Position numbers and translations under genes: made by a program
Part shown: piece by piece, positions 26,839 through 54,503 of the stretch
Layout of the letters: every line of letters starts with the position of its first letter
How positions within the stretch are numbered: position 1 is the stretch's first letter
Notes under the pieces: generated by a model
Told to the model about the DNA's origin: nothing
The model's database searches: none
Seen by the model: the letters and a program-made list of their open reading frames with translations, nothing else
Origin: Hymenobacter sp. YIM 151858-1
GTDB lineage: Bacteria; Bacteroidota; Bacteroidia; Cytophagales; Hymenobacteraceae
DNA: 64,000 bases
Direction: 5' to 3'
NCBI RefSeq assembly: GCF_025979705.1
Contig: NZ_CP110136.1
Location: 2,976,001-3,040,000 of the forward strand

Positions 26839-26912
26839 GCTTCCTTAGCTCAGTCGGTTAGAGCATCTGACTGTTAATCAGAGGGTCCCTGGTTCGAGCC
26901 CAGGAGGGAGCG
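26839..26912 (+). tRNA. tRNA-Asn (anticodon GTT)
   Basis: A cloverleaf can be drawn by hand. The 7-bp acceptor stem (GCTTCCT with AGGGAGC, one G-U) lies around a D-arm starting TAGCTCAGTCGG, an anticodon arm TCTGACTGTTAATCAGA with GTT, and a T-arm CCTGG-TTCGAGC-CCAGG. The CCA end is not encoded. Its 3' half is the likely attachment site for the neighbouring integrase. Confidence 0.93.
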
Positions 26913-26920
26913 CACAACCG

Positions 26921-26959
26921 GAAGAAGCCCGCCGATAACCGGCGGGCTTCTTCGTTTTT
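26921..26959 (+). terminator. Terminator after tRNA-Asn
   Basis: A perfect 14-bp stem (26921-26934 with 26940-26953) is followed by GTTTTTA. Confidence 0.85.
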
Positions 26960-27032
26960 AGGCCATTCCAAGCCACTTTTTGTTTTTGCCTTCCTTGCCT
27001 TTCCTCCGCGTTCCGGTTATCTTTCGATATAA

Positions 27033-27067: not shown

Positions 27068-27073
27068 GGCAGG

Positions 27074-28399
27074 ATGGCAAAGCAGATTACCTACCGGAAA
27101 CAGATCAGCGTGCGGATGAGCCTGCGGCTGGCCAAGCGCAATAAGCGGGGCTTCTGCCCGGTGCGAATGACGGCGCGCTGGCACGGGGAGGAACTGCAGA
27201 TGGACACCGGGGAATTGGTAATGCCGACGGGAAAGAACCGGCGGGGTAAGGAAGAATCCTTTTGGGACGCGGAGGCGGGGCAGGTGGTCGGTGACCACCC
27301 CGACAAGGCGTACTTAAACTCCCGGCTGGCCGAATGGGTCAGGGACGTTACCCAGGCCTTCGAGTCGGTGTTTGACCGGGCGCCGTTTGAGAAGGTGAGC
27401 AAGGAGCAGCTGCGGGCTGAGCTGTTTCCGCCCGAAGTGGAAGAGGTTCCTGAACCGGCAGAGGTGGTCAAGCCAATCAGCCGCACGTTCCGACAGGTGC
27501 TGGAAGAGTGGAAGGAAGAAAACCGCAACCTGGGCAAAGACTCCCTGCGCAAGTACGACCAGCTGGCTACCATGATGGAAACCTGGCGGCCTGACCTGCG
27601 GCCGGAACAGGTGACGCAGAAGATTGCCAAGGAATATCAGCAGCATCTGCTGGACCTGCAGAAGTCGGACGCCACCATCAAGGTGCATTTCACCGGGCTG
27701 CGCAAATGCCTTGAGCAACTGGGGCTGCCGGCCGACATGGCGTGGCTGCAGTATTCGGCCAAGAACGCGCCGCAGCTGGACCTGGAAATCGAGGAGGTGC
27801 AGCGGCTGATCAGGTGGCGGCCGACTTCGGACGTACTGGCGGAAGAGCGGGACCGGTGGCTGTTTCAGCTGTTCAGTGGGCGGCGCTACGAGGATCTGGA
27901 GAAGTTCGACCCACGGGAGCGGATTACGCTGACGCTGGAAGACGGCCGTAAGGTGCCGGCCCTGCTGCACGCCCAGGGCAAGACGGGCAACGATGCAGCC
28001 GTGCCCCTCCCCCCTATTGCGGTGAACATCGGGGAGCGGTGGGGCTGGCAGTTTCCGGCCCGTACCTGGCAGCAGCGCGGCGACTACATCAAGGACATTG
28101 CCCAGCAGGCCGGACTTAACCGGGAATGGGACGACCGGCTGATTACAGGCGGGAAGGTGGTGCACAACTGGCGCCCCATTTGGCAGGTGATTAGCACCCA
28201 CACGGCCCGGCATACGGCGGCTACGCTGCTCAAACAGGTCAGCAACGGCAACAAGGCCCTGGCGAAGCTGGTACTGGGGCACGCCGAGGAAGACGTGACG
28301 GACCGCTACGCCAAAGACAAGGCCCGGCTGCTGGCTCCGGCTGTGCTGGATGCCTGGCAGAAGATTCTGGGGGACTGGTACGACAGAGTGCCAGCCTAG
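27074..28399 (+). CDS. int: Tyrosine recombinase (phage-type integrase)
   Basis: A 441-residue site-specific recombinase, probably inserting the element at tRNA-Asn. The N-terminal arm-binding-like region (1 to about 110) is unusually basic. The core-binding helical domain spans about 140-240 (FRQVLEEWKEENRNLGKDS...). The catalytic residues line up: Arg in LFSGRRYEDLEKF (about 270), Lys in HAQGKTGNDAAVPLP, HxxR in THTARHTAATLL, His in LVLGHAEEDVTDRY, and the nucleophile Tyr in DRYAKDKARLL. It is intact and full-length. It is transcribed away from the tRNA into the element. Confidence 0.93.
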   Translation: MAKQITYRKQISVRMSLRLAKRNKRGFCPVRMTARWHGEELQMDTGELVMPTGKNRRGKEESFWDAEAGQVVGDHPDKAYLNSRLAEWVRDVTQAFESVFDRAPFEKVSKEQLRAELFPPEVEEVPEPAEVVKPISRTFRQVLEEWKEENRNLGKDSLRKYDQLATMMETWRPDLRPEQVTQKIAKEYQQHLLDLQKSDATIKVHFTGLRKCLEQLGLPADMAWLQYSAKNAPQLDLEIEEVQRLIRWRPTSDVLAEERDRWLFQLFSGRRYEDLEKFDPRERITLTLEDGRKVPALLHAQGKTGNDAAVPLPPIAVNIGERWGWQFPARTWQQRGDYIKDIAQQAGLNREWDDRLITGGKVVHNWRPIWQVISTHTARHTAATLLKQVSNGNKALAKLVLGHAEEDVTDRYAKDKARLLAPAVLDAWQKILGDWYDRVPA

Positions 28400-32737: not shown

Positions 32738-32760
32738 GCTGTAAGTAGTTGGTATAGCTA

Positions 32761-32768
32761 CAAAGATA
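32761..32768 (-). promoter_or_regulatory. -7 promoter element of the AlbA_2 gene
   Basis: TATCTTTG on the minus strand lies 23 bp before the start codon. Confidence 0.5.
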
Positions 32769-32818
32769 CGGTAGCCAATCGACGGCTTACGCGGATATAC
32801 CCGGCATCGGACAAATGC

Positions 32819-33694
32819 CTACCCCTGCCTCGCTTGCCTGACGGCAAGTACCCGGGCAACATCTGAGGGCAGCTGTATATCCCTATTCGGTGTCACCTCA
32901 CTGCCCAATACCCTGGCATCATTGCGACGCTCAACTAGCCGGTTAATGTAAGCGGGGGGCGCATCAACCAGGTAATTGATTTCCGGCTCGCGCGCCCCCA
33001 TTACGCCAAGCGCATAATTCACGCGTGTGGCTATGCACTCAGTTGTTAACCCAAACGGAAAGCAGACCAGCCATTGTAAAGGCCACGAATCCTTGATGGT
33101 ATCTGATAGCGCACACTTGTAGGTTATCAAGCCTGATTTAAGCGGTACACGCAATGCCCTTACCTTCTGGGCAGCCATAATTGAGCAGCCAAAGCTGCTG
33201 TCTGTTAATGGCAGCCACGATAACACGCTGGCGGTACCAACTGCCGGCAACGACTGCCAGTAGCTGTACAGGCAATAAACAGGCACACGCGGGCAGGCCG
33301 GGTCATCTTTGAGAGCCCGCGCAATTAGCTTGTCTGACTGATAGAATTTCTCAGGTGGCGTACCTGCAGGAATGGTTTTACCCGGACAGAGATAATGCAG
33401 ATGCTCAAAGCGGGGGCTATGCTCATCAATTACCTTGGCCTGTACCCGCATTCCAATCCATTTTCCTGAACTGCCTTGGAACCACCATTCCCAGTCAGCG
33501 CCATTTCTACCTTCTTTGAGCTTGCTAAACGCCTCAATGTCGAAGGCTGGAAGGCGCAGCCGCAGCAGGTCACGGATCAGTAGGTCAGTAAGAGTTTCTT
33601 CGCCGAGATAATAGCCCAGTGTATGCCCCTCCTGAATGCGGTGCCACGTATCAACTGATGCTTTACTGAATGCGGCACAGATAGGACCTGCCAT
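32819..33694 (-). CDS. DUF6615-like predicted PD-(D/E)XK-fold protein
   Basis: A 291-residue protein. The N-terminal half contains an arrangement like a restriction-type nuclease core: EETLTD (Glu 32/33), then GADWEWWF (Asp 67, Glu 69), then GMRVQAKV (QxK, Lys 87). This GADWEWW and VQAK pairing is what I remember from DUF6615 proteins, which sit in defence islands. The remainder is alpha/beta with no further motif. It lies in a leftward set with the DUF3427-like gene (98 bp gap). Nuclease activity is inferred from motif spacing only. Confidence 0.6.
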   Translation of the reverse strand: MAGPICAAFSKASVDTWHRIQEGHTLGYYLGEETLTDLLIRDLLRLRLPAFDIEAFSKLKEGRNGADWEWWFQGSSGKWIGMRVQAKVIDEHSPRFEHLHYLCPGKTIPAGTPPEKFYQSDKLIARALKDDPACPRVPVYCLYSYWQSLPAVGTASVLSWLPLTDSSFGCSIMAAQKVRALRVPLKSGLITYKCALSDTIKDSWPLQWLVCFPFGLTTECIATRVNYALGVMGAREPEINYLVDAPPAYINRLVERRNDARVLGSEVTPNRDIQLPSDVARVLAVRQARQG

Positions 33695-33792
33695 AAAATT
33701 GTTTGCTTAAAGGAGGGCTCAGGATGCATCTCCTCGAAGATGCACGCTCAACCATTTCCTCGAATAAACACACCACGGTGCGCTTTAAGCTG

Positions 33793-34215
33793 CTATGATA
33801 TTCTCGTATCCGCCAACAGCACAAATGAAGCTGGATGTCCTGCTTGATGACTATGGTACTTGAAGCGACCCAGATAACGGAAGGCGGCACCAGGATATTC
33901 AGATTTGTTGCGGCGGTAAAAAACCAGCAACTCTATGTTCTCCGCCTCATGACTGATGATAAGCTGGTCGGTGCGGCCACTCAGCTGACCTTGCCATTTA
34001 AGCATGTTGCCATCCAGTTTGTCTTTATACTGAGTCTTGTCGGCTGTTTTTTCTTCGGTTACAAAAAGCCAAACTGACTTGGTATTCCTCGGTCGGAACA
34101 CGCCAGTGTTGATCGTGGCATCGTTGATACCAAACTGATTACGCAGGTCTTGCCTGGAATATACTTCACTAATATTGAGATTTTCGGAAGTGTAATTAGG
34201 GCCAGAAGAGGTCAT
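33793..34215 (-). CDS. Stand-alone DUF3427-like domain protein
   Basis: A 140-residue protein resembling the DUF3427 domain normally found at the C-terminus of large helicase-nucleases. The features are ISEVYSRQDLRNQFGI, NTGVFRPRNTKSVWLFVTE, the Lys/Tyr/Asp segment, MLKWQGQLSGRTDQLI, LLVFYRRNKSEYPG and FRYLGRFKYHSHQ. The related modules are found beside HNH and sulfur-binding nucleases, where they may recognise modified DNA. Here it is separate. It is divergent from vsr with an 89-bp shared regulatory gap. Confidence 0.6.
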   Translation of the reverse strand: MTSSGPNYTSENLNISEVYSRQDLRNQFGINDATINTGVFRPRNTKSVWLFVTEEKTADKTQYKDKLDGNMLKWQGQLSGRTDQLIISHEAENIELLVFYRRNKSEYPGAAFRYLGRFKYHSHQAGHPASFVLLADTRIS

Positions 34216-34304: not shown

Positions 34305-34742
34305 ATGGCTGACAAGATTACACCTGCACGGCGGAGTTACAACATGGCACGCATCCGCAGCAAGGATACCAAGCCTGAGCTAATGGTGCGGCAATGGCTG
34401 CACAAGCAAGGGGCAAGGTTCCGGCTGCACCGGGCAGATCTGCCAGGTAAACCCGACATCGTACTGCCACGCTACCGCACTGTAGTTCTAGTGCACGGTT
34501 GCTTCTGGCATGCGCACGAGGGGCGTCCCTGTTTTAAAATTCCGTCCTCGCGGACGGAATGGTGGCAGCGGAAACTCGGCCGTAACAAGGCGCGGGACTG
34601 GCAGCACCAGCGGGCCCTGGAACTACAGGGCTGGCAGGTGCTGGTGGTGTGGGAGTGTGAACTGAAGCCTGCGCGGCGGGACGCGACACTTCAGCATTTG
34701 TGGAATGAATTGACTGACAACCCACTTCGCCTGGCCGGCTAG
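34305..34742 (+). CDS. vsr: Very short patch repair endonuclease
   Basis: A 145-residue Vsr family nuclease that nicks 5' of the T in T:G mismatches made by deamination of 5-methylcytosine. The family core is present: RSYNMARIRSKDTKPELMVR, the catalytic Asp in GKPDIVLPRY, HGCFWHAHEGRPC with its zinc-type His/Cys, and VVWECEL. It is the first gene of the rightward defence operon, whose last gene is a C5-cytosine methyltransferase, so it should repair that enzyme's mutagenic by-product. A perfect 9-bp inverted repeat (34539-34547 with 34552-34560) lies within the gene. Confidence 0.94.
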   Translation: MADKITPARRSYNMARIRSKDTKPELMVRQWLHKQGARFRLHRADLPGKPDIVLPRYRTVVLVHGCFWHAHEGRPCFKIPSSRTEWWQRKLGRNKARDWQHQRALELQGWQVLVVWECELKPARRDATLQHLWNELTDNPLRLAG

Positions 34743-34746
34743 ACTT

Positions 34747-34860
34747 ATGTCGTATAAAGAAATTACAAACCGCACGCCAGAGTTGCAGTTATGTGACTTT
34801 ATCAACTACTTGCTAGACCCGAAAAAACCAGCTGCAAATGAATTGCGGCTGACGAGCTAA
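34747..34860 (+). CDS. Possible 37-residue small protein in defence operon
   Basis: An ATG-initiated ORF encoding MSYKEITNRTPEL...ELRLTS fills almost all of the 126-bp gap between vsr and the next gene, leaving 4 and 8 bp at the ends. The exact fit suggests it is translated as part of the operon. It resembles no family I know. It could instead be the remnant of a larger gene. Confidence 0.4.
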   Translation: MSYKEITNRTPELQLCDFINYLLDPKKPAANELRLTS

Positions 34861-34868
34861 CATTATAA

Positions 34869-36845
34869 ATGGACTATATACAGTGGAATAATCTGGTCGC
34901 AGATTATTTGTTTAAACCTGCCCGGCAGGGACAGGAGGTGTTCTTATATCTCACCGAGGACAATCTACTGCAAGCGGTGCAGTTGGCAGCAGCCAAACCC
35001 ACCGCCACTAGTACCTTGGCAACACTGGCCAGCGCCGAAAACGCTGTCATTCTGCGTGACTTTTGGCAAGCCCTACAACGCGGTCCTGTATTCTGGGATA
35101 ATGTATCCTCGAGTAAACAATCTGTAGTACTCGGTGAGGAAATACACGACTGGATTGTACGCGATGCACCAGCCCACCCTGCTGAGCTGGCCAAGTATGC
35201 TTGGCAAGACTGGATGCAGGCCGCACCGGGAGCTACTGCCGGTCAGCGCACAGTTTTGTTTCGTGGCAACAAAAGGCTATCGCTCAAGGCCCCGCTCCAT
35301 CTGTTGTATTTGGCTTGCTTCACGCTGCCGTTCAGCATCGATACGTCTGTAACCCGAGGGTTTTACAGATGCTGGAATAACTTTTTCAGAGGTAAAGGGC
35401 TACTGCTACGCAAGACAGAGATGCCAGACAATGCCTTTGCCCAGCTAGGCAGCGGGGTTTGGGTGCAGATGTGGCAAGAGTTAGCCCGGTGGAGCCAGGA
35501 AGATTTGCAGGGCACACGCGGGGTGCTGGTGGCCCGGAAGCTGGGGCACCATATTCATGTCGGCTGGCCACGGGCTCAATGTCTCCTCCCTCCAAGTACC
35601 TTGAGCGGTTTGCCAGCTTTTTTTGGCCGAAACAATATACTGCCAGGGTCCAGAGTCACTGCCGACAAAATGCGGAGTCTGTTACTGCAGGACTCCAACC
35701 TACTGCTACCTACTTCAACCCGCCACGAGTTGCAAGAGGGCACAGAACTAGGGGTGGCGGTAGTAGATATTGTGCAGAACATACTAGACCGTTGGACTGG
35801 CAGCACTAGCCGGCGCGAACGGGTAGTACGCTCGGGTGGGCAGGTGAAGACTGTGGAGTACCGCGGTGAAACTTACGCCCGGCTGATGCCTTTTATCCCT
35901 GATTGGATAAATGAAACCGGAAAGCTTTCCCTACACTACCGGCTGGATATCAAAACACCGATTCCGGATGATCTGGTGCTAACGGGACCGGGCGTACAGC
36001 AGCAAGCTGTTCAACCGGAAACTACCGAATGGTCGCAGGAAGTAGAAGGTATAAAGACTAGTAGAGAAGCCCAGGTTTACCGAGATACTGCAAACAACTG
36101 GAAGGTGGTAGCCCAGCTGGCTGAACTTCAAGTCTTCATTTCCGGAGGGCGTTACGGTTTTTACCAGTGGTGGGTACCAGCGCAGACACTCGAACGTGGT
36201 ACCCCCCTGTTAGTTCTTTGCCATAAGCGCCATTCCAGCGCTATACAGCAGTGGAAGAGTGGCGTTGGACCGGCCGGGTTTCTGGACTGGTCACACTTCA
36301 ATGGGGTTCCAGACGACCACTGCCTGTTCTGGCTGGAAGGTTTGCCTGCTGACGCAACAGGCCTGGCTGGCCTATCAGTCGCTACTGAAATTCAAATTGT
36401 GGCAGAAGGTGGCTTGGCCTGCGGTTACCGCACCTACTTGGGTGAATTGGTGCCTTCGTTCCGGGTTATCAACGGCCAGAAAGATTGGCAGCTATGCTTG
36501 GCTTACACAGATGGAGGGCCAGCAGTTGAGTTAAGTCAGGACGCTAAAGACGTCGCACTATGGCATTTACCTTCCGGCGTGGCGACGGATAGGAAGTTCA
36601 GGGTATTTGCCGTCGGCGAAGCAAATGTTAGCAGTCTACCACATTGCATTACTTCCAGCAAGCTGCCAGAAAATTATTCTGCTCCAAGCCGGGATTCATT
36701 GGGACTTGCTACAAGCATGATTCCTGAGGAGTTGATAGGCCTGTGCTATGACGGATATGAGCTGCGTGGAGAAACCCAAACTCTGCAACAGCTTCGCTTC
36801 CGCCAGCAGGTGGTCTATGCCCAGTATTTCCAACCCGTTTGCTAA
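34869..36845 (+). CDS. Unknown defence-operon protein A (DruF/DruG-like position)
   Basis: A 658-residue protein without a recognised domain. Its N-terminus (MDYIQWNNLVADYLF) and many Trp residues give a mixed alpha/beta profile. There are no membrane segments, nucleotide-binding loops or nuclease motifs. The next gene starts 29 bp before its stop, so translation is coupled. Position just before a giant helicase/DUF1998 protein in an operon with a C5 methyltransferase suggests one of the two accessory proteins of type II Druantia. Which one, I cannot say from sequence. It shows AT-richer codon use than the element's phage-type genes. Confidence 0.7.
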   Translation: MDYIQWNNLVADYLFKPARQGQEVFLYLTEDNLLQAVQLAAAKPTATSTLATLASAENAVILRDFWQALQRGPVFWDNVSSSKQSVVLGEEIHDWIVRDAPAHPAELAKYAWQDWMQAAPGATAGQRTVLFRGNKRLSLKAPLHLLYLACFTLPFSIDTSVTRGFYRCWNNFFRGKGLLLRKTEMPDNAFAQLGSGVWVQMWQELARWSQEDLQGTRGVLVARKLGHHIHVGWPRAQCLLPPSTLSGLPAFFGRNNILPGSRVTADKMRSLLLQDSNLLLPTSTRHELQEGTELGVAVVDIVQNILDRWTGSTSRRERVVRSGGQVKTVEYRGETYARLMPFIPDWINETGKLSLHYRLDIKTPIPDDLVLTGPGVQQQAVQPETTEWSQEVEGIKTSREAQVYRDTANNWKVVAQLAELQVFISGGRYGFYQWWVPAQTLERGTPLLVLCHKRHSSAIQQWKSGVGPAGFLDWSHFNGVPDDHCLFWLEGLPADATGLAGLSVATEIQIVAEGGLACGYRTYLGELVPSFRVINGQKDWQLCLAYTDGGPAVELSQDAKDVALWHLPSGVATDRKFRVFAVGEANVSSLPHCITSSKLPENYSAPSRDSLGLATSMIPEELIGLCYDGYELRGETQTLQQLRFRQQVVYAQYFQPVC

Positions 36846-37914
36846 ATCTGCATTGCACAACGATACCCTTTTACATTATCTGACTCTACAGGGGCGGCTC
36901 ACCAATCAGGAATTCGGCGAGGCGTTTCAGGTAATCCATGATAAACGGCGCCGTGAAGCAGCCCCAGGTTCACACGCAGTCTTATTGAAGGCAGTAGACA
37001 AGCGTGCTGCTATGCGTCTGTATGGCCAACTAGGGTTTGGGGACTATGACGCGCAGCATGGTCTCCTACGGGTACATCCCCCTGGGGTCATCCTGTTGCC
37101 AGCACCTACAGGCTTCTGTGGCCGGCGCATGCTCTTGACAGGGGCACGTACCAAGCAGCTCATCGCGGATATTAAGCAACAGGCTGCAGCGTTAGATATC
37201 GAGGTGGAAGTGAGGCCACAGCCCAAGAGTAACGCCCACCTGCTTTTGCCTGATCGGGTGGTGTTAACAGCGCGCGGGAATGCCCAAACCAGTTATGGAC
37301 TGCACAAACTAAAACACTTGGCGGCCGAATGCCGACTGCAATTCTGCAGCGACCTGGTGCAACCGGAACTGATGGCTTTTTCCACCAAGCTGGAAGCCTA
37401 CTGCGCTTCGTTGCAACCCCACAACGATGAACTCCCTGATGACTGGAAGCAGTCCTGGTTCAATCCGCAAACGCTACAATGGCAGGAAGGAGTTGGTAAC
37501 AAATCCTTCAGTCTGGTTGAATTTGAGCTTACAGTATACCGGCGCCACTGTTACTTGTGGCAGGACAATATTCCTTATGCCGTTGATAAGAGCTGGGGAA
37601 GGTACCTAGTTCTTTCGCGGGCAGAGGCAGGAGCACCGAAACGGGTGCTGCTCCATAGCCAGTCACAGGAATTGCTTGCCGTGCCAGCCGCAACGCCGTT
37701 ACCCGAATTACCGGCCCGGGCGGCCACTCTATTAAGCGGGTTAGCTCCTGAGCAGTGCCTCGTTGACTACGCCGGTCAGATACGGCGCTATAACGTCTAC
37801 AGCGCCCCTGGCATGTACACACTGCTCTATAACAAATTACCTGAGCTTCTGGGACAGAAAATCATCGAAGTACAACACCTGAACTGTTTGCCCGCCTCCT
37901 CTTATTATGAATGA
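36817..37914 (+). CDS. Unknown defence-operon protein B (DruF/DruG-like position)
   Basis: A 365-residue protein starting MPSISNPFAKSALHNDT. The start inside the previous gene (29-bp overlap) is preferred to the earlier ATG at 36748, which would give a 98-bp overlap and a non-conserved leader. It contains several Cys and His (FCGRRMLL, RLQFCSDLVQPEL, YRRHCYLWQD) but no clear zinc knuckle, and ends in LNCLPASSYYE. Its stop overlaps the helicase start by 8 bp. Unknown family; probably needed together with the helicase. Confidence 0.7.
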   Translation: MPSISNPFAKSALHNDTLLHYLTLQGRLTNQEFGEAFQVIHDKRRREAAPGSHAVLLKAVDKRAAMRLYGQLGFGDYDAQHGLLRVHPPGVILLPAPTGFCGRRMLLTGARTKQLIADIKQQAAALDIEVEVRPQPKSNAHLLLPDRVVLTARGNAQTSYGLHKLKHLAAECRLQFCSDLVQPELMAFSTKLEAYCASLQPHNDELPDDWKQSWFNPQTLQWQEGVGNKSFSLVEFELTVYRRHCYLWQDNIPYAVDKSWGRYLVLSRAEAGAPKRVLLHSQSQELLAVPAATPLPELPARAATLLSGLAPEQCLVDYAGQIRRYNVYSAPGMYTLLYNKLPELLGQKIIEVQHLNCLPASSYYE

Positions 37915-40900
37915 TCCAATCGGTGCGTTTGACACCATCCGCGACAATTTTATCCGCTACGTTGAAACAGCGTTCCGCACCAAATTTCCAGATATAGAGG
38001 AACGTCGGCACAAACTGCTGCATCAGGACCGGGTGCTGTACCGTCAGCCTTGGGCCGAACCACTACCGGAGTACAAGAGCAGCAGGAAGAATATTGCTGC
38101 GCTTGGCCCGGATGACTTACCCGGATTAAACAGCAGGCAGCAGGAGCTATTCAAGGGCCTGATCCAATCTGGCTTGATTGACAACCCTGAGATAGAATTG
38201 TATGAACACCAGGTGACAATGCTGCGGGAAGCTCTGCAGCATAGACATTGCGTTATTACATCTGGTACTGGTTCTGGTAAGACCGAATCATTCCTGTTGC
38301 CGCTGTTGGCTGAAATCACCAAGGAATTCACCCGAAAGGAATGGCGGCCGGCTGGAGAGATGCCAGCTAGTGCGAAAAACTGGTGGGATGGCCCAAATAA
38401 GCTCACGGATACTAGCGCAGTTGATAAAGCGGCAACGACTGGTAGCGGCTTAAAACCTGCCGCTAAACAACGCGGGCACGAGAAACGCCCCGCGGCAGTG
38501 CGGGCGATGATTCTCTACCCGATGAACGCCCTGGTTGAGGATCAGATGACCCGCTTGCGGCGGGCCCTTGACTCGCAGGATGCCCGCGACTGGTTTGATG
38601 CTAACAACAATGGCAACCGCATCCATTTCGGCCGATACACAGGGGCTACGCCTGTGGCCGGCTCATTGCGCAAGAAAAATGAGGCTGGGCAGTGGGAGAT
38701 TAACAAGTACAAGCTGACTGAGCTACGAGCTGAGCTGCAACAGGCTAGCGCCAATGCAGAAGCCATTGCAGAATTTATAAGTCAGCCTGAAAACGCTAAC
38801 CGTCGGAAGGAACTGACTGCCTTCTTTCCGCAGCTGGACGGAGCAGAAATGCGGAGCCGGTTTGATATGCAGGACTCCCCACCGGATATCCTGATTACCA
38901 ACTATTCGATGCTCAGTGTGATGCTAATGCGTACACTGGACAGCCCGATTTTTGAGAAGACGCGCCTTTGGCTGGAAGAAGACAGCAGCCGGATATTTCA
39001 CCTGGTAGTTGATGAGCTGCACCTATACCGGGGCACTGCCGGCACTGAGGTAGCCTACCTCTTACGGCTCGTATTACAACGCCTTGGTCTGTCGCCTGTG
39101 CATCCTCAGCTACGAATATTGGCCAGTAGTGCTTCGTTGGAAACAGAGGGTGAGGAAGGTGTAGCAAGTCGTCAGTTCCTCGAAGACTTTTTTGGTGTTC
39201 CCACTAAGGAAGACGGTAGCGAGGCTTTCCAAATCATCAAAGGTCAAGAGATTGAAGTAGCAGTGGCTCCTGACGGCAACTCGAAACGCCATTTACCAAT
39301 AGCTCCATTCAAGGTGGTAGCTGACGCATGGGGCGGAACACGGGACCAGTTGGACGAGGCTGCAACCGAAGCGACCCAGCTGCTGAACCAGTTTTGCAGA
39401 AGGACGCAGAGCCCGACTGAACCCGGCACGGGTGTAGCCGCGCTGGGGCGCTGCCTATTGTCGGCCGAACTGCAATTGCGCGAGCGGCTGTACGCGGCCT
39501 GTCAGGTGACCGACCAAGGTACCGGGCGCACCAAGATCCGAGCAGTACCCGTACTGCCCGCTAATGACAGCCTTGCCCCTGGCTTCCAGCACCTGGCCAT
39601 ATCATTATTTGGCCCAGGGCATGACGAGGCAGATTTACGGGCCGCTATGCGTGGCCTGTTTATCGCGCGCGGCCTACTCGATGACAGGCAATTTCGGGAT
39701 GTTGAAAAGGCAGCACGGATGCAGGGGCGTGCATTACCCCGGTTCCGGTTCCACTTCTTCTTTCGCAACATCGAAGGATTGTGGGTGGGCTTGCCTGACC
39801 TACCTGACGGTCAGCAGGTAAGAAAGCCATTTGGTGAGCTGCTGCCGCAGACAAAGCTGCGCACCGATGACGGCCAGCATGTACTGGAAGGTCTGTACTG
39901 TGACAGCTGCGGCACTGTGTTCTATGGCGGAGCCCGCCTTAACTGGTCGGTACCAGGTGCTGCCTCCCGCAACAGCTTCCAAATGTTGACTGTTAGCCCT
40001 GACATTGAGGGCATTCCGGAAAAGGCAGCCGAAACCTTGGTGGAACGTCGGACCTATGCAGACTACGCGGTATTCTGGCCAGCTGGGGACCAGAAGGTGC
40101 TACCTTATGAAAACCCACGGCGGGAATGGACGCAGGCTGAACTTGATGCGGAAGGCCCCTTTCCGTGGCAGCAACCTGGTATAGGAAAAAACCGGCCAGC
40201 CAATACGGCTAAATGGGTACGGGCCAGAATTGATAGCCGTACCGGCCAGGTGCAGCTACTTGGGAACGGCTCGTCCGCACCAAGTGCCGCCAACGGCCCG
40301 GATTGGATTGCGGGGTGGCTTTTTTGCGTAGAAGGACAGGCTGGAGCCGACGCACAGCCATTGCGGGCGATGCCGGCAGTATGTCCTGGGTGCGGCGCCA
40401 ATCATGAAAGGGGCAAGAGGCGTCTGAGTTCAGTGCGCGGCTTCCGGACTGGTTTCGGCCAGACCAGTCAGACGTTTGCTAAGGAACTGCTGTTACAGTT
40501 GCCGGAAGGCGCCGATAGCCGGAAGCTAGTTGTATTTTCAGACAGCCGGGACGATGCAGCTCAAGTAGCCAATGGAATAGAACGCAACCACTACGGCGAC
40601 CTGCTGCGTGAGCTGCTGACCGGTTATCTGCAGCAGCAAGTATTGCAAGGAGCGGATTTGGTGCAGGCCATCCAAAGCGGCCAGCTGAGCCAAGAAGAAT
40701 TGGGGATACTTCGTGAGAAGAACGAACAGCTCTACGATGATGTGGAGAGTTGGCTGGACGAGTTACAAAATCTGAGCAGCCCCAATAGCACAAAACGCAA
40801 GAAAGCTGAGGAGGCGCAGGAAGCGTTAGCAAAGCTTACCGAGAAAACAGTACCCCTACAGGCGCTGATTAGCGGACTCACTAACGATGGCAGCGCTACG

Positions 40901-43900
40901 CTGCAGCAGTTATTCCTGGAGTTAGGTGTAAACCCCGGAGGCAATGAACTTGAAGCACAATACCTTGATAGTCAAAACCGGCAACAGCCGTGGTTTGATG
41001 GCGTCGACTATTCCGATCCATCAAAACCGAAATGGAAGGTAAACTATGGGGCACTGGGTGACAGAATACGCAACAGTCTTACCGACCGGGTAGCAGAATT
41101 ATTGTTCCGCCGCCTGTTCTATTCGCTTGAAGCATCAGGGCTTGGAACGGCGGTAGTGAGACCCAAGCTAAACGGTTCAGCACTATCCGCTTTGCCATCT
41201 ACGCTTCATGCACACGCAGACCACATACTAAGCGCCGTTGTCAGAATTCTGGGCGACAAATACCGTTACACAACCAGCGAATACAAGAGCGAACGGCCAC
41301 TGGCCAGTTCCGAGGATTTTCCTGGTGCCGTCAAACGGTATTTGAAAGCCGTTGCAGGCCTGCATCTAGGCGGCAGAGACCAGTGGGAAGTTATTGCTGA
41401 TTGGGTGCGCCGCTATCTGCGCGGACCAGGGGGGCCAGTTGTGATGGATTCCCATGGCAACGTAGATACCATTGCCTTGAGTTTGCAAGCCGCTGGTAAA
41501 ACTGACCCGGTTTGGGTTTGCGGCAAATGTCACCGGCCACACCTGCACCCAGCAGCCGGCATTTGTACGGGTTGCCGTGAACCACTGCCCCAACAGCCAG
41601 CAAAACAGTGTCAGGAACTGTGGGAACGGAACTACCTCGCATATCATGCAGCACTTCATCCGCGCCCTTCTATCCGGTTACATTGCGAGGAACTTACCGG
41701 CCAAACAGATGACCAGTTTGAGCGGCAAAGGCATTTCCGTAACGTGGTGCTTACCCGCGAAGGTCCGGCAGTAGTACGGCAGATAGATCTACTGAGCGTT
41801 ACAACAACCTTGGAAGTCGGCGTTGACATTGGTGCCCTGCAGGCGGTGATGCTAGCGAACATGCCCCCGCAGCGCTTCAATTACCAGCAACGGGTAGGCC
41901 GTGCAGGCCGCCGGGGCCAGGCGTACTCTGTCGCCTTTACTTTCTGTCGGGGTCGCAGCCATGATGAGTTTTACTTTGCCAACCCCCACAAAATAACTGG
42001 CGACGATTCACCTACTCCCTTCTTGGCAATGGATCAGCCCCGCATTTTGAAGCGCGTACTAGCCAAAGCCGCGTTGCGTGAGGCGTTCCAATACGCTGGT
42101 GCCACTGGAGGCGGAGTACACGGGGAGTTCGGGGAGCAAGGGACATGGCCTGCGTGGCAGGACGGCGTTAAGCATTGGCTGAATAAGGAGTCTGCAGATT
42201 GGGCTACAAAGGTCCTGGGTGTTATGACTGGTGCCCAGAATGAGCAATATATTCCGGAAATGCTGGATTGGCTGGCTGATACAGGCACTGGTTTATACCG
42301 TGAAGTAGACCGGGTTATGACCAGTAAATCCCCTGGTGAGGACAACGCCGACAAACTAGCCCAAGGTGGCGTGCTCCCCATGTTTGGAATGCCTACCACG
42401 GTCCGGAACTTGCACTTAGGAGCACGGCAGCAGGCCGGTAGATGGATATTACCGCTCATTGACCGGCAGGCAGATACTGCCATTTATGAATTTGCACCAG
42501 GAGCCCAGAAGCTTAAAGACAAGTTCTATTATATGGCCACTGGGTTCACCTCTGAGTTGCAGACCCAGCAACGCCACGACCGGACAGTAATTACCAACCG
42601 TGACGGGGACCCGTTTGTGCTCAGACGCTGGATGCGTACCTGCCCGGTATGCCATCACACAGACACCTGTGAACAGGCAGACCCGCCAGCATCAGTGTGC
42701 CCCGTCGAAGCCTGCAAGGCTGAGCTCGATGCGCCGCACGTCAGCACGGCACATATCTATGAAGTAGTTTCTCCTAAAGCATTCCGTACGAACTACGGAC
42801 CGGGCAGCGATGAACGGGAAGACGTGGATTCGTATGTGCAGCGTCCTCCCCTTTTAACAGAACGCGGCACGGATAGTGAGCCCACACCTGTATTGGAGCT
42901 TCGTGGGTCGCAGGCCATGCTTTGGGATGCTGATGTGGTATGGCGCTTAAACAAGGGGCCTCGCGAAGCATTATTTGGTGGCGGAATGAAAGCAAATGTG
43001 CGTGAGAGGCACCTTAACGACATATGGACTACTCAGCAGTGGCTGGCTGACGAAGCCAATCCGCAAGAGCGGGTGGCCTTGGCAGCCAATAAGAAAACGG
43101 AGCTATTGCAGCTCAAGCCCACTACAGTGCCCCTTGGCTTGAACCTCGGCTTAGATGGGTCAACCGGTTCGCAAAGAGACGGGGTGAAGGCAGCGTATTA
43201 TTCAGCTGCTTTCCTGCTGCAACGCGCCATTGCGGATGAAGAGGATATCGAGCCCGAGGAAATTGAAATTGGTAGCATCACGCAAGTGCCCTTAGCCGAT
43301 GACAAACGGGCGGGCCGTTTCGTGGGTCAGTTGACACTGAGCGACGCGCTGCCAAATGGTTCGGGCTTTGTGCGCCGGTTGTTCGGAAAGATGGCTCCTG
43401 TGGGCCAAGGCTCAATCGGCATGGACTTGATACAGGAGGCACTAGCGCCAGCAGAGGCGGGAGGGTATCTCGACAAGATCCACAACGACAGAGGAACCGG
43501 CACGGATGGCCACCCTGAGCGTTGCAAGACGGCCTGCTACAACTGCTTGATGGGTTACCGTAACATGAGTTATCATACTTTGCTGGATTGGCGGCTTGCG
43601 CTAGGTCTGCTGCGGGTAATGAGAGACCCTTCTTACCGCGCTGGTACAGATGGGCAGTTCACTACTCCTGAACTCGCAGGCTGGTTGGATCAGGCAAAGG
43701 CTCTTTTTTCCGATCTGGCTACCAGCTTCTTTATTACACCTGGAGGCATCACCGGCGAAGTCAGCGAGTTGCGGGCCAGCAACGGCCAGACTCTTCCGGT
43801 TCTTCTATGGGGTCCCAGCCGCCAGAACATAACTCTAGCAGTTCATCCATTTTGGGAACTCAACCGCCCTGAGGAAGGCAGCTGGCTAACCGAAATACTC

Positions 43901-44026
43901 GCGCTGGCACAGCAGTACGCGCTCGACCATGATGGGCAAGTCCAGTTCCTGGATTCGTTCAATCTGGCCCGCCGCATGGGCAAATGTTATGAATGGCTCA
44001 AAAGCAGCCAAAACCTGCTTAAATAA
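37907..44026 (+). CDS. druE: Giant SF2 helicase with DUF1998 (DruE-like)
   Basis: A 2039-residue protein. Superfamily 2 helicase motifs: Walker A SGTGSGKT (119-126), the DEAH-type motif as VVDELHLYRG (about 369), motif III SSASLE, and motifs V/VI TTLEVGVDIGALQAV and QRVGRAGRRG (about 1328). An insertion of about 900 residues between the RecA-like lobes holds two Cys-pair ribbons (CDSCG, CPGCG), a coiled coil (about 940-990) and a further CGKC/CTGC pair. The C-terminus is DUF1998 (CYNCLMGYRNMS, about 1878). Length and architecture match DruE of Druantia anti-phage systems, with MrfA/YprA-type repair helicases as the nearest alternative. It is coupled by overlap to genes on both sides. Confidence 0.85.
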   Translation: MNDPIGAFDTIRDNFIRYVETAFRTKFPDIEERRHKLLHQDRVLYRQPWAEPLPEYKSSRKNIAALGPDDLPGLNSRQQELFKGLIQSGLIDNPEIELYEHQVTMLREALQHRHCVITSGTGSGKTESFLLPLLAEITKEFTRKEWRPAGEMPASAKNWWDGPNKLTDTSAVDKAATTGSGLKPAAKQRGHEKRPAAVRAMILYPMNALVEDQMTRLRRALDSQDARDWFDANNNGNRIHFGRYTGATPVAGSLRKKNEAGQWEINKYKLTELRAELQQASANAEAIAEFISQPENANRRKELTAFFPQLDGAEMRSRFDMQDSPPDILITNYSMLSVMLMRTLDSPIFEKTRLWLEEDSSRIFHLVVDELHLYRGTAGTEVAYLLRLVLQRLGLSPVHPQLRILASSASLETEGEEGVASRQFLEDFFGVPTKEDGSEAFQIIKGQEIEVAVAPDGNSKRHLPIAPFKVVADAWGGTRDQLDEAATEATQLLNQFCRRTQSPTEPGTGVAALGRCLLSAELQLRERLYAACQVTDQGTGRTKIRAVPVLPANDSLAPGFQHLAISLFGPGHDEADLRAAMRGLFIARGLLDDRQFRDVEKAARMQGRALPRFRFHFFFRNIEGLWVGLPDLPDGQQVRKPFGELLPQTKLRTDDGQHVLEGLYCDSCGTVFYGGARLNWSVPGAASRNSFQMLTVSPDIEGIPEKAAETLVERRTYADYAVFWPAGDQKVLPYENPRREWTQAELDAEGPFPWQQPGIGKNRPANTAKWVRARIDSRTGQVQLLGNGSSAPSAANGPDWIAGWLFCVEGQAGADAQPLRAMPAVCPGCGANHERGKRRLSSVRGFRTGFGQTSQTFAKELLLQLPEGADSRKLVVFSDSRDDAAQVANGIERNHYGDLLRELLTGYLQQQVLQGADLVQAIQSGQLSQEELGILREKNEQLYDDVESWLDELQNLSSPNSTKRKKAEEAQEALAKLTEKTVPLQALISGLTNDGSATLQQLFLELGVNPGGNELEAQYLDSQNRQQPWFDGVDYSDPSKPKWKVNYGALGDRIRNSLTDRVAELLFRRLFYSLEASGLGTAVVRPKLNGSALSALPSTLHAHADHILSAVVRILGDKYRYTTSEYKSERPLASSEDFPGAVKRYLKAVAGLHLGGRDQWEVIADWVRRYLRGPGGPVVMDSHGNVDTIALSLQAAGKTDPVWVCGKCHRPHLHPAAGICTGCREPLPQQPAKQCQELWERNYLAYHAALHPRPSIRLHCEELTGQTDDQFERQRHFRNVVLTREGPAVVRQIDLLSVTTTLEVGVDIGALQAVMLANMPPQRFNYQQRVGRAGRRGQAYSVAFTFCRGRSHDEFYFANPHKITGDDSPTPFLAMDQPRILKRVLAKAALREAFQYAGATGGGVHGEFGEQGTWPAWQDGVKHWLNKESADWATKVLGVMTGAQNEQYIPEMLDWLADTGTGLYREVDRVMTSKSPGEDNADKLAQGGVLPMFGMPTTVRNLHLGARQQAGRWILPLIDRQADTAIYEFAPGAQKLKDKFYYMATGFTSELQTQQRHDRTVITNRDGDPFVLRRWMRTCPVCHHTDTCEQADPPASVCPVEACKAELDAPHVSTAHIYEVVSPKAFRTNYGPGSDEREDVDSYVQRPPLLTERGTDSEPTPVLELRGSQAMLWDADVVWRLNKGPREALFGGGMKANVRERHLNDIWTTQQWLADEANPQERVALAANKKTELLQLKPTTVPLGLNLGLDGSTGSQRDGVKAAYYSAAFLLQRAIADEEDIEPEEIEIGSITQVPLADDKRAGRFVGQLTLSDALPNGSGFVRRLFGKMAPVGQGSIGMDLIQEALAPAEAGGYLDKIHNDRGTGTDGHPERCKTACYNCLMGYRNMSYHTLLDWRLALGLLRVMRDPSYRAGTDGQFTTPELAGWLDQAKALFSDLATSFFITPGGITGEVSELRASNGQTLPVLLWGPSRQNITLAVHPFWELNRPEEGSWLTEILALAQQYALDHDGQVQFLDSFNLARRMGKCYEWLKSSQNLLK

Positions 44027-44883
44027 TGATTGCAGCGCTGCAGCCTCTCACCAGTATATCTCCCAGTCAGTTTGTGCGGCTGCAGCGCTGCGCCTATCAG
44101 GTGCTGCTGGAAAGGTCTTCGGAGGGGAAGACGTTATTGGCAGTGTCCGGTTCTGGTTTAGGCCCTGGCGGTGCTGGGCCCTTGGGAACCATCATTCATA
44201 AAGTGTTGGAAACAGCCAACACAAGCGGTATAAGCACTGTAGCTGACTTTGAAGCCGAGTGGAACAAGCAAGTGGAATATCAGGAGGCCGAGCTGATTAA
44301 AAAGCAGCAGCAACACCTGGTTCCACTTGCTTACCGCGCTCATCAGTATGCTGTCAGAAAGTTGCTGCTGTGCTGGATGCTCACAGGCAGGTCGAAACAA
44401 GCTTCCTCTGCTCCGCTAGGTGTTGAACAATGGCTGGCTGATAGTCATGGTATTGTTCGTGGTGTAGCCGATCTAATCAGGCGCAACGCCGCTGGCAATC
44501 TGGAAGTGGTGGACTACAAAACCGGGCGCATAACCGAACCGGACGCGGAGTCTCCAGAGCCGGATGCCCGCAAAATCAAGCCTGAATATGTTACGCAGTT
44601 GCAATTGTATGCTGCCCTGTTGCATGAAAGTTCTGGCGAGTGGCCAATTTCAATGCTGCTGGCAGATCTGGCGGGTAATGAATACCCAGTGGCCGGCAGT
44701 TTGCAGGAATGCTCCTTTCTGCTAGCTGCTGCCCATGCGTTATTCAAGGAAGTCAATAACCAGGTTGCCGCCGGCCATAGCGAGCAACTGGCCCGGCCTG
44801 CAACGGAAGTTTGCCATGGTTGCCAGGTAAAGCAACTGTGTGAGCCTTACGCAGTATCGGTTGGCGCTGCTTCCAATAGTTAG
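44026..44883 (+). CDS. RecB/Cas4-like PD-(D/E)XK nuclease with Fe-S cysteines
   Basis: A 285-residue nuclease of the RecB/Cas4 superfamily. It shows the GxxxH motif (LGTIIHKVLE), GVADLI, the catalytic VVDYKTGR, and QLQLYAALL (QxxxY). Four cysteines at the ends, Cys22 (RLQRCAYQ) and Cys263/266/272 (CHGCQVKQLC), fit the Cas4/AddB iron-sulfur cage. The start overlaps the helicase stop by one base (TAATG), so the two are cotranslated and likely partners: a helicase feeding a nuclease. I do not recall this nuclease as a standard Druantia component, so it may be what is new in this locus. Confidence 0.88.
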   Translation: MIAALQPLTSISPSQFVRLQRCAYQVLLERSSEGKTLLAVSGSGLGPGGAGPLGTIIHKVLETANTSGISTVADFEAEWNKQVEYQEAELIKKQQQHLVPLAYRAHQYAVRKLLLCWMLTGRSKQASSAPLGVEQWLADSHGIVRGVADLIRRNAAGNLEVVDYKTGRITEPDAESPEPDARKIKPEYVTQLQLYAALLHESSGEWPISMLLADLAGNEYPVAGSLQECSFLLAAAHALFKEVNNQVAAGHSEQLARPATEVCHGCQVKQLCEPYAVSVGAASNS

Positions 44884-44981
44884 AAATTGTTGTTTTGCTA
44901 CTTTATTATCAGTTATGGCTGATTTACATTTACTAGTTACTGTATCATATAGCAGTCGAGGATAACAGTTGTGCGGAATTA

Positions 44982-46205
44982 ATGAATGCGTCACTTCAAA
45001 GCTTGCAGGAAATAGCCCATCAGATTCCCGTATTGTCCTTTTTCACAGGCGGCGGACTCATGGACATGGGATTTGAATCATTGGGTTTTCCCGTGGTGTG
45101 GACTAACGAGGTCGACCCTCAGTTTGCGGCCCTTTATGCCGCGGGCATGACCTCTTGGCGTCGTGGGAAAGACCCGCAGGCCGGAGAGGCCAAGATTACA
45201 TTTGCAGGCAGTATTGTAGATATCCCGGACGATGACACGATTCTCAAGCAGGCCTTTCCTGCAGGAACACCCAACCTGTTCGGTATCATAGGCGGGCCAC
45301 CCTGTCAAGACTTCAGCATCGCCGGCAAACGGGAAGGTATAGGTGGACAGCGGGGTAGTTTGACGCACGATTACTGTTGGCGCATCGACCACCTGCAACC
45401 AGCATTCTTCGTTTTTGAGAACGTAACTGGCTTGTTACAAAAAAAGCACCGGGCAGAATTCGATCTGATCCGGGACTTTTTCAAACAGCATTACCTAACG
45501 GATTACGCTAAATTAAACTCGCTGGATTACGGAGTGCCGCAGAGCCGCGAACGGCTTTTCCTGATTGGTATCCGGCGGGACCTGGTACAGGTACCACAGA
45601 TGGGTTTATTTGCACCTGAGTTACCAGAAGCTGGTTGGGCCGGTTGGGAACAGGAGTTTACCCACGCGGAGGCCCGCAAGAGCTACACATGGCCTACCAC
45701 CACGCCATTGGGGGTAACACCTCCGGCACCAGAAATAGAGCAGCAGCTCGATTTGTGCGTCAGCCGGTGTCTTGTTCCTGAGCACCTGGAGGAAACAACC
45801 CATAATGCTAAGGAGCGTTTCAACTTGATTTCAAAAAAACCTGCAGCAACGGACGAAGGCATGGTATCTAACCGGTCTTTTAAACGGTTACATCGTTACC
45901 GCTACAGCCCAACTGCATGCTATGGCAACAACGAAGTACATCTGCACCCATGGGAGAACAAGCGCCTTTCCGTCCGGGAGGTGCTGCGTATCCAGGGAGT
46001 GGATGAGGAATACATTCTACCAACCGACCTGCCACTTAGCGCAAAGTTCAAGATGATTGGCAATGGTGTGCCCGTTCCATTGGCCAACGGGGTTGCCCGC
46101 ACTATTGCCAGGCTATTAAGGGACTACTGTGGTGTCAGGGCTAAAAGCGAAGTTGCTCTTAAGTCGGAACTATTAGTACAATCCTTGGCCCTGGCGGAGG
46201 TTTAA
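44982..46205 (+). CDS. C5 cytosine DNA methyltransferase (DruM-like)
   Basis: A 407-residue Dcm-type enzyme that transfers methyl groups to C5 of cytosine. Motif I LSFFTGGGLMDMGFESLGF, motif IV GGPPCQDFSIAGKREG (nucleophile Cys108), motif VI FFVFENVTGL, motif VIII DYGVPQSRERLFLIGI, a target recognition domain of about 110 residues, and motif X MIGNGVPVPLANGVA are all present. It lies 98 bp after the nuclease gene, a gap that is AT-rich and may carry its own promoter. It presumably marks host DNA as self for the helicase system. Target sequence cannot be read off. Confidence 0.92.
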   Translation: MNASLQSLQEIAHQIPVLSFFTGGGLMDMGFESLGFPVVWTNEVDPQFAALYAAGMTSWRRGKDPQAGEAKITFAGSIVDIPDDDTILKQAFPAGTPNLFGIIGGPPCQDFSIAGKREGIGGQRGSLTHDYCWRIDHLQPAFFVFENVTGLLQKKHRAEFDLIRDFFKQHYLTDYAKLNSLDYGVPQSRERLFLIGIRRDLVQVPQMGLFAPELPEAGWAGWEQEFTHAEARKSYTWPTTTPLGVTPPAPEIEQQLDLCVSRCLVPEHLEETTHNAKERFNLISKKPAATDEGMVSNRSFKRLHRYRYSPTACYGNNEVHLHPWENKRLSVREVLRIQGVDEEYILPTDLPLSAKFKMIGNGVPVPLANGVARTIARLLRDYCGVRAKSEVALKSELLVQSLALAEV

Positions 46206-46497: not shown

Positions 46498-47217
46498 TCA
46501 CATCAGGCCACCGTTTCCAGTCGCACGTAATACTGCGTGTCGCGTCGCGGGCCCGGTGCCCATCACAATGCCGACGGCAGGTATGACCTCGGCGGCGTGC
46601 CGGCGTAGCAGGGCAGTGTATTTCTTCCGGCCCTGCGTGAGCAGGCCCGCATCGGCGCTGGTGTCGAAAACCCAAACCTCGTGCGGAGCTTTTTTCTGGA
46701 CGCCGATAATCAGGAAGCGGTCAGCCTGCAGGGCGTCGAGGTAGAGGGCGGCCTGGCGGTCGTAGTCGTACTGCTCAACGGTGGCCAAGAACTGTTCCCG
46801 GCTGCGGCAGCTGGTGGTTTTGAAGTCGATGAGGGTACGGCGGCGGCCGGCGGGGCTGACTATCAGCAGATCGGGGCGCACCTTTACCCCTACCCCGGTT
46901 TCGGCGTGCACGGCGGTATGGGTCAGCTCGGCGGTGCCGCGGTACAGCAGGTCGCGGCAGTAGCGCTGGTGGCGCACGTGGCGGGCCAACTGCTCCAGCT
47001 CCTGCCAGGGGCATTTGTCGGCGGTGCGGGCGTAGGTGCGGGGCTCCAGGGTAGCCGCGTGAAAGGCCGAGCCGTAGGCCAGAGCCTGGGGGTTGGGGTT
47101 GCGGAGCTGGCCCAGCACCCGGGCTTTCAGCTCGGAGAGGTCAGTATTGGAAACGTGCGGCAGGGCGCGGTGCTGCTCCTGAGTGAGGCCGGGGTAGGTT
47201 TGGAGGCTGTGAAACAT
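46498..47217 (-). CDS. RecE/YqaJ-like PD-(D/E)XK exonuclease
   Basis: A 239-residue protein of the phage-type exodeoxyribonuclease VIII class. The motifs are HVSNTDLSELK near the N-terminus, LAYGSAFHAATLEP (GxxxH), VKVRPDLLIV (catalytic Asp), LIDFKTTSC (ExK position held by D-F-K) and QYDYDRQAALYLDAL (Q/Y motif). Such enzymes chew 5' ends to leave single strands for annealing recombination in phages. It is the last gene of the leftward early module, after several small phage-type genes. Confidence 0.85.
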   Translation of the reverse strand: MFHSLQTYPGLTQEQHRALPHVSNTDLSELKARVLGQLRNPNPQALAYGSAFHAATLEPRTYARTADKCPWQELEQLARHVRHQRYCRDLLYRGTAELTHTAVHAETGVGVKVRPDLLIVSPAGRRRTLIDFKTTSCRSREQFLATVEQYDYDRQAALYLDALQADRFLIIGVQKKAPHEVWVFDTSADAGLLTQGRKKYTALLRRHAAEVIPAVGIVMGTGPATRHAVLRATGNGGLM

Positions 47218-47262
47218 GGCTGTCAGGGTCCTAGTGACTTGATTTTATTCTGCGTTGTAGGC

Positions 47263-47526
47263 TTATCGGTCCTCACGGATGAGAGCCAGGCGGTTCGGGT
47301 CGTCGGTGCGGTGTAGCCAGATGTGGGCGCCGCCGCAGCCTACCTGGTAAGCCGGGGCCGGGAAAAGCGCACGGATGGCCGGCGCCAAGGCGCGCACATC
47401 GGGCATGGGGCCGGTGGCCTCTATAAGCTGGCCGAGCCGGGCCAGCAGATCGGCCTCCGTGGCATCGAGCGGGGCTTGCTCAATGCGGAGCCGGGGCAGC
47501 GTGAGGGTGGTATGCAGCTGAGGCAT
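47263..47526 (-). CDS. Small hypothetical phage-type protein
   Basis: An 87-residue protein (MPQLHTTLTLPRLRIEQ...) lying 45 bp upstream of the exonuclease gene in the same direction. Its second half (YQVGCGGAHIWLHRTDD) looks like a short beta unit. No family is recognised. Confidence 0.55.
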   Translation of the reverse strand: MPQLHTTLTLPRLRIEQAPLDATEADLLARLGQLIEATGPMPDVRALAPAIRALFPAPAYQVGCGGAHIWLHRTDDPNRLALIREDR

Positions 47527-47584
47527 GGCGCGGGAATGGTAGCCGGCTCGGGCCCCCGCCTCAGGGGAAGCGGAGGCCCGGGCA

Positions 47585-54490: not shown

Positions 54491-54503
54491 TAGTAAAGTT
54501 TAT

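What the first reader, a model, noticed from the sequence alone, without database searches (positions are those of the whole stretch)
34305..46205. Druantia II-like operon with an added Fe-S RecB/Cas4 nuclease
vsr, two unknowns, a 2039-residue SF2 helicase/DUF1998 and a C5 methyltransferase match what is known of type II Druantia (DruM, DruF, DruG, DruE). A RecB/Cas4-like nuclease with four Fe-S-type Cys is cotranslated with the helicase (TAATG junction). Druantia's mechanism is not understood; a built-in nuclease would supply the missing cutting step, with the methyltransferase marking self and Vsr repairing its deamination damage.
Basis: partly seen in the sequence, partly recalled or inferred. 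Interest (0 to 1): 0.85.

Follow-up and report, generated by a model that had tools for sequence, protein, structure and literature searches.

The report
Druantia defence operon with nuclease DruK
A mobile island in a Bacteroidota bacterium carries a Druantia anti-phage operon in which a DNA-cutting enzyme, already listed in a defence database but not described in the papers searched, travels as a close partner of the big helicase and so is a good candidate for the step that cuts phage DNA.

Summary
The six genes are real. PADLOC-DB names them Vsr, DruF4, DruL4, DruE2/DruE4, DruK and DruM2. The Fe-S RecB/Cas4-like nuclease is not an ad hoc addition. PADLOC-DB already lists it as DruK. All 57 full-length homologues keep the catalytic residues and four cysteines. 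Of 92 related helicase loci 60 have it, 29 lack it and 3 are undecidable; in 57 it starts right at the end of DruE. In 395 same-phylum genomes it occurs in 7, all carrying DruE. Its divergence tracks DruE's (r 0.96) more closely than DruM's or Vsr's does (about 0.7). Every Vsr locus also has a C5 methyltransferase (32 of 32). The operon sits in a ~40.5 kb island at tRNA-Asn, not at this site in two same-genus genomes. Most likely: F/L recognise invading DNA, E unwinds it, K cuts it, M marks self, Vsr repairs deamination at M sites. Gene content and conservation are shown; the mechanism is inferred. New variant of a known kind.

The parts
26899..26960 (+). left end repeat (attL-like): last 15 bp of tRNA-Asn plus 47 bp; its copy lies 40.5 kb downstream, outside the window, at L105:3360-3421
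   Evidence: 62 bp with one mismatch; tRNA-Asn 26839-26913
27074..28396 (+). tyrosine integrase of the island
   Evidence: Phage_int_SAM_5 7e-6; Phage_integrase 8e-4, under its cut-off
34305..34742 (+). Vsr, very short patch repair endonuclease (accessory)
   Evidence: PF03852 2.3e-32, TIGR00632 5.5e-43, PADLOC Vsr 1.6e-32
34869..36845 (+). DruF (658 aa), proposed recognition/adaptor protein; helical N-terminal region and beta-sandwich-like regions in the model of a fused homologue
   Evidence: PADLOC DruF4 1.4e-41, DruF2 1.5e-36; model of the fused homologue L103, pLDDT 90.2
36820..37914 (+). DruL (364 aa; the longer frame starts at 36748); fused to DruF in many Bacteroidota relatives
   Evidence: PADLOC DruL4 4.1e-35; fused forms of about 935-1080 aa
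37907..44026 (+). DruE, 2039-aa YprA/MrfA-type SF2 helicase with an inactive-looking C-terminal domain
   Evidence: PADLOC DruE2 1735 bits, DruE4 1554 bits; invariant helicase motifs; C-terminal domain
44026..44883 (+). DruK, Fe-S-type PD-(D/E)XK nuclease of the Cas4/Dna2/AdnAB/AddB kind; H58, E134, D149, D163, K165, Q191, Y195 and C22/C263/C266/C272; lacks the ~75-residue C-terminal extension of most homologues
   Evidence: PADLOC DruK 1.2e-23; motifs 57 of 57; model pLDDT 90.9 and fold matches
44982..46205 (+). DruM, C5 cytosine DNA methyltransferase
   Evidence: PADLOC DruM2 1.4e-117; PF00145 7.9e-53

Best explanation
A Druantia operon, F-L-E-K-M with Vsr, borne on a ~40.5 kb integrated island. 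Proposed mechanism: DruF and DruL (one protein in many relatives) recognise invading DNA and load or license DruE; DruE, a YprA/MrfA-type SF2 helicase whose own C-terminal nuclease-like domain looks dead, translocates and unwinds; DruK, a Cas4/Dna2/AdnAB-like Fe-S nuclease whose start codon overlaps the DruE stop, cuts the exposed strand, so DruE+DruK resembles the helicase-plus-separate-nuclease layout of MrfAB. DruM methylates host cytosines so that self DNA is spared, and Vsr repairs T:G mismatches left by deamination at DruM sites. Shown: the genes, the catalytic motifs, the conservation, the linkage and co-divergence of E and K, the restriction of Vsr to loci with a C5 methyltransferase, and the mobile context. 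Inferred: anti-phage activity of this locus, an E-K complex, substrate, direction of cutting, a bound Fe-S cluster, and the self-marking role of M.
For: PADLOC names for all six. DruK starts within 110 nt of the end of DruE on the same strand in 57 of 60 K+ loci; E-K-M order in 47 of 60. At E <= 1e-15 DruK occurs in 7 of 395 same-phylum genomes, all 7 among the 9 with DruE2; the same 7 carry DruF/L. Catalytic residues and four Cys 57 of 57. Closest solved structures by sequence: Dna2 1e-6, a mycobacterial AdnAB-type helicase-nuclease 1e-5; by fold: Argonaute-associated Cas4-like ACE1, AdnAB chain A, Dna2. Distance correlations with E over 45 loci: K 0.96, F 0.91, M 0.71; Vsr 0.68 over 21. After removing E (44 loci), K still tracks M (partial r 0.32, 0 of 500 permutations) and F tracks L (0.72), while M does not track F or L. 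dN/dS of K 0.15 against L014. Vsr only with a C5 methyltransferase, 32 of 32. DruE C-terminal domain: H1980 and W1983 in 89 of 92 rows, but an acidic residue after the conserved proline 1964, where Vsr has its active-site Asp (KPD; residue recalled), in 1 of 92.
Against: 29 of 89 decidable loci have DruE without DruK, including three Bacteroidota and the cyanobacterial F-L-E loci; one neighbouring protein in each of eight of these 29 was checked and no consistent replacement nuclease appeared. So K cannot be needed by every such system. One K+ locus (L063) has DruK in three fragments. 16 of 83 decidable loci have a C5 methyltransferase without K and 3 have K without one. The K-M association is not significant once relatedness is counted (10 independent pairs, median p 1), and the partial K-M correlation could come from the two genes being neighbours. 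My profile comparison of the DruE C-terminal domain with Vsr was not significant (0.9% probability). No fold match identifies DruF/DruL, so the recognition role is a guess.
Confidence: 0.55

Rival explanations
1. F-L-E-K is a complete, methylation-independent defence core; DruM and Vsr are a separate, exchangeable methylation module that happens to sit beside it.
For: M and Vsr follow DruE's divergence much more loosely than K does (0.71 and 0.68 against 0.96); 8 loci have neither K nor a C5 methyltransferase within 7 kb and 3 have K without one; M does not co-vary with F or L beyond E; Vsr against L014 has dS 1.68 while the other five genes have 0.36-0.55, so Vsr seems to have another history.
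Against: E-K-M is contiguous and in the same order in 47 of 60 K+ loci; 56 of 59 decidable K+ loci have a C5 methyltransferase; K co-varies with M beyond E.
Confidence: 0.25
2. DruE itself cuts, or recruits a host nuclease such as RecBCD/AddAB, and DruK is an auxiliary end-processing enzyme.
For: 29 of 89 decidable loci lack K and no replacement was seen in the eight checked; in Druantia III DruE is reported as a helicase-nuclease and defence is sensitive to loss of RecD (PMC13192584, abstract, outline and passages).
Against: The DruE C-terminal domain lacks an evident active site here and is called inactivated for types I and II (PMC12458937 section 8); DruK's active site is invariant and K co-diverges with E more tightly than DruF does.
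Confidence: 0.15
3. A DNA-repair helicase-nuclease pair, a relative of MrfAB, rather than immunity.
For: YprA/MrfA-type helicase next to a separate nuclease gene, as in MrfAB (PMC12458937 sections 5 and 8).
Against: Patchy (9 of 395 same-phylum genomes), borne on an integrated island with a PDC-M15 pair and a VWA/PP2C/kinase set, with a methyltransferase beside it.
Confidence: 0.05

Closest known systems
Druantia type IV (PADLOC, PMC8565338)
   Same: DruE, DruF4 and DruL4 models all match, in the order F-L-E; DruG not found; DruK models are in PADLOC-DB
   Different: Type IV is described as lacking DruM; here a DruM2-type methyltransferase and Vsr are present; DruE scores higher with type II models
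Druantia type II
   Same: DruE2 and DruM2 give the best scores; Vsr and a C5 methyltransferase also sit beside a type II-like locus in Rhizobium (L020)
   Different: No DruG found; DruL in its place; DruK present; DruM lies after K, whereas in L020 the methyltransferase is in front
MrfAB (YprA/YprB)
   Same: YprA-family helicase with a separate nuclease gene
   Different: MrfB is described as having a 3'-5' exonuclease domain (PMC12458937 section 8); DruK is a Fe-S-type PD-(D/E)XK enzyme; context is a defence island
Cas4, ACE1, Dna2, AdnAB/AddAB nucleases
   Same: Fold and PD-(D/E)XK motifs; four-cysteine layout like AddB's (recalled)
   Different: Only 11-21% identity in the ten best fold matches; partner is a YprA-type helicase

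Membership tests
Druantia (any type) | DruE, large YprA/MrfA-type helicase | tested here: met
   DruE2 1735 bits over residues 1-2034, DruE4 1554 bits
Druantia type II | DruM C5 methyltransferase | tested here: met
   DruM2 1.4e-117
Druantia type II | DruG | tested here: not met
   no DruG match among the 19 island proteins scanned, not the whole island. Caveat: the model is weak on diverged members (2e-4 on L020)
Druantia type IV | DruE with DruF and DruL | tested here: met
   DruF4 1.4e-41, DruL4 4.1e-35
Druantia type IV | DruM and DruG absent, as described in PMC8565338 | tested here: not met
   DruG not found but a DruM2 match is present. Whether PADLOC's rule file forbids DruM could not be checked
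DruK nuclease family (PADLOC-DB) | match to DruK models | tested here: met
   1.2e-23; 49 of 49 members of A4 match PDLC00060
Fe-S RecB/Cas4/Dna2-type nuclease | H, D, D-x-K, Q-x3-Y and C...C-x2-C-x5-C | tested here: met
   57 of 57 full-length homologues; fold matches. Bound Fe-S and cleavage not tested
Vsr | Vsr profile; found beside a C5 methyltransferase | tested here: met
   TIGR00632 146 bits, cut-off 97.85; 32 of 32 Vsr loci carry a C5 methyltransferase
Anti-phage defence system | protection against phage | not testable with these tools
   needs experiment

The most novel reading that the evidence does not exclude
F-L-E-K-M(-Vsr) is an unnamed, widespread Druantia subtype in which the cutting step lies in a dedicated Fe-S nuclease working with a nuclease-dead DruE. 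K and M form a restriction-modification-like pair on one side of the helicase and the F-L recogniser forms the other side, i.e. a helicase-driven restriction system built of two exchangeable halves.
Probability: 0.4. Interest if true: 0.6.

Novelty: new variant of a known kind. Interest (0 to 1): 0.42.

Why it matters
In the papers seen here only Druantia III has a worked-out mechanism, and the helicase of types I/II is described as carrying a dead nuclease domain. A conserved, catalytically intact nuclease whose gene overlaps the helicase gene gives a direct, single-residue test of where the cutting comes from, and the methyltransferase/Vsr pair gives a direct test of how self is spared. It also suggests that types II and IV are ends of one modular family.

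Tried and rejected
A genome-contig scan with the window DruE alone found no relative; the scan with alignment A1 worked. A nuclease replacing DruK was sought by Pfam in one neighbouring protein of each of eight of the 29 K-less loci: RVT_1 (L100), a Schlafen-type helicase (L094), a NERD/UvrD protein about 640 nt downstream in L022, an Abi_2/HEPN protein after the methyltransferase (L040), a FAD oxidase (L056), a Na/H exchanger (L061) and no match (L083, L086): no consistent replacement. The idea that K-less helicases keep an active C-terminal nuclease was rejected: K+ and K- rows share the same residues. K-M co-occurrence is significant by Fisher (p 0.0016) but not by independent pairs. A clean empty site was not found: one same-genus genome (L109) has about 0.45 kb and another (L108) about 10.8 kb of other DNA at the site, and they resume at own coordinates 78745 and 71046, beyond the island's right repeat; whether these two genomes carry Druantia elsewhere was not searched. 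Promoter/terminator scan found nothing above shuffles.
Full report
WHAT IS THERE. Six co-directional frames, Vsr, 658 aa, 388 aa, 2039 aa, 285 aa and 407 aa, lie exactly as described. PADLOC-DB models name them Vsr (1.6e-32), DruF4 (1.4e-41; DruF2 1.5e-36), DruL4 (4.1e-35), DruE2 (1735 bits; DruE4 1554), DruK (1.2e-23; Cas4 8.6e-6) and DruM2 (1.4e-117). Pfam and NCBIfam agree for Vsr, helicase, PD-(D/E)XK and C5 methylase. No DruG model matches any of the 19 island proteins scanned. PADLOC's paper describes type IV as encoding DruE, DruF and DruL and lacking DruM and DruG (PMC8565338, passages), so this operon fits neither description cleanly.

THE NUCLEASE IS NOT AN ADDITION. DruK is present in 60, absent in 29 and undecidable in 3; in 57 of the 60 it starts within 110 nt of the end of DruE on the same strand, most often at zero or 3 nt; E-K-M in that order on one strand occurs in 47. 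In 395 same-phylum genomes DruE2 occurs in 9; at E <= 1e-15 DruK and DruF/L occur in the same 7 of these and in none of the other 386. All 57 full-length DruK keep H58, E134, G146, D149, D163, K165, Q191, Y195 and C22, C263, C266, C272. The C...C-x2-C-x5-C layout is that of AddB (spacing recalled, not from a call). By profile DruK's nearest solved relatives are Dna2 and AdnAB-type helicase-nucleases; the model (pLDDT 90.9) matches Argonaute-associated Cas4-like ACE1, AdnAB chain A, Dna2 and Cas4. The window's DruK (285 aa) lacks the C-terminal ~75 residues of most homologues, as do L014, L016, L026 and L027 (278-290 aa).

CO-DIVERGENCE. Protein distances over 45 loci holding E, K, M and F correlate with DruE's at 0.96 (K), 0.91 (F) and 0.71 (M); Vsr gives 0.68 over 21 loci. 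With DruE held constant (44 loci), F tracks L (0.72), K tracks M (0.32, 0 of 500 permutations), and K does not track F or L, nor M F or L. Adjacency may explain part of this. Against the close relative L014, dN/dS is 0.05-0.15 for every gene, but Vsr has dS 1.68 where the rest have 0.36-0.55, so Vsr seems to have its own history. On a FastTree tree K needs 10 changes, M 9 and Vsr 21. I read the core as F-L-E-K, M as a frequent but exchangeable partner and Vsr as a roaming accessory.

VSR AND METHYLTRANSFERASE. Among 70 decidable loci, Vsr+M+ 32, Vsr+M- 0, Vsr-M+ 27, Vsr-M- 11 (Fisher p 6e-4; the independent-pairs test goes the same way, 4.1 against 0.0 on average of 18 pairs, but too few pairs differ for significance, median p 0.125). 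In 20 of 32 Vsr is within 600 nt of a C5 methyltransferase; in the window it is 10 kb away, at the operon's other end. 'M' in these counts means any C5 methyltransferase within 7 kb of DruE.

WHO CUTS? A preprint reports that YprA-type helicases of Druantia I and II carry an inactivated Vsr-like C-terminal domain (PMC12458937, sections 5 and 8 read, other passages seen). Here H1980 and W1983 are kept in 89 of 92 C-termini (three rows lack the region) and D2016 in 83, but the residue after P1964, which aligns by eye with the Asp of Vsr's KPD, is acidic in 1 of 92, in K+ and K- loci alike (the profile comparison itself was not significant). In Druantia III, DruE is reported as a helicase-nuclease (PMC13192584, abstract, outline and passages). 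So in this clade a nuclease in trans is a reasonable need, and DruK is the conserved candidate. Against it: 29 loci lack K, three of them named Bacteroidota, and no consistent replacement was found in the eight checked.

DRUF AND DRUL. They are one protein of about 935-1080 aa in many Bacteroidota and two in the window, in most cyanobacteria and in the Bacillota and archaeal loci listed. A fused homologue (L103) folds confidently (pLDDT 90.2, pTM 0.88): a helical N-terminal region, beta-sandwich-like regions, then a winged-helix-like start of the DruL part (my reading of the secondary structure). No informative fold match was found. Their role as recogniser is inferred by elimination.

CONTEXT. 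The operon is on an island: tRNA-Asn 26839-26913, integrase 27074-28396, a 62-bp repeat with one mismatch at 26899-26960 and 40,461 bp further on. G+C is 52-56% in the operon against 61-68% in window 1-26000. Two same-genus genomes align up to the tRNA and resume at own coordinates 71046 or 78745, with about 10.8 or 0.45 kb of other DNA between; the island is therefore not at this site in either, though no clean empty site was seen.

NOVELTY. In the held open-access library no listed paper holds both 'Druantia' and 'DruK', one holds 'Druantia' with 'DruF', and three hold 'Druantia' with 'Vsr', of which the passages seen in two concern nuclease domains rather than a Vsr gene beside DruM (the third, a preprint version of the second, was not opened). 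Subscription papers are mostly not held. Verdict: new variant of a known kind, moderate interest.

Noticed in passing
26839-28396 and L105:3360-3421: ~40.5 kb integrated island at tRNA-Asn with a tyrosine integrase and a 62-bp end repeat (one mismatch); not at this site in two same-genus genomes.
   Followed up: yes
59411-60806: Two genes matching PADLOC candidate defence pair PDC-M15A (1e-77) and PDC-M15B (6e-70) on the same island.
   Followed up: partly
52601-58888 (- strand): VWA, PP2C phosphatase, protein kinase, an unassigned gene and a DUF4407 protein in a row: resembles a TerY-P-type triad (label recalled).
   Followed up: partly
30953-34215 (- strand): Schlafen/AlbA_2 protein with HTH repeats, DUF6615 protein and a stand-alone DUF3427 domain protein, divergent from Vsr; possibly another defence module.
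   Followed up: partly
46498-48262 (- strand): DUF3799 PD-(D/E)XK protein and a 225-aa protein with no Pfam match: phage-recombination-like pair (RecE/RecT-like guess).
   Followed up: no
L020:529-18179: Rhizobium plasmid locus with Vsr, C5 methyltransferase, a restriction-enzyme-like ATP-binding protein, DruF2, a weak DruG match, DruE and a McrC/AAA pair side by side.
   Followed up: partly
L063:15582-16626: DruK in Paenibacillus sp. yr247 is broken into three fragments after a full-length DruE.
   Followed up: no
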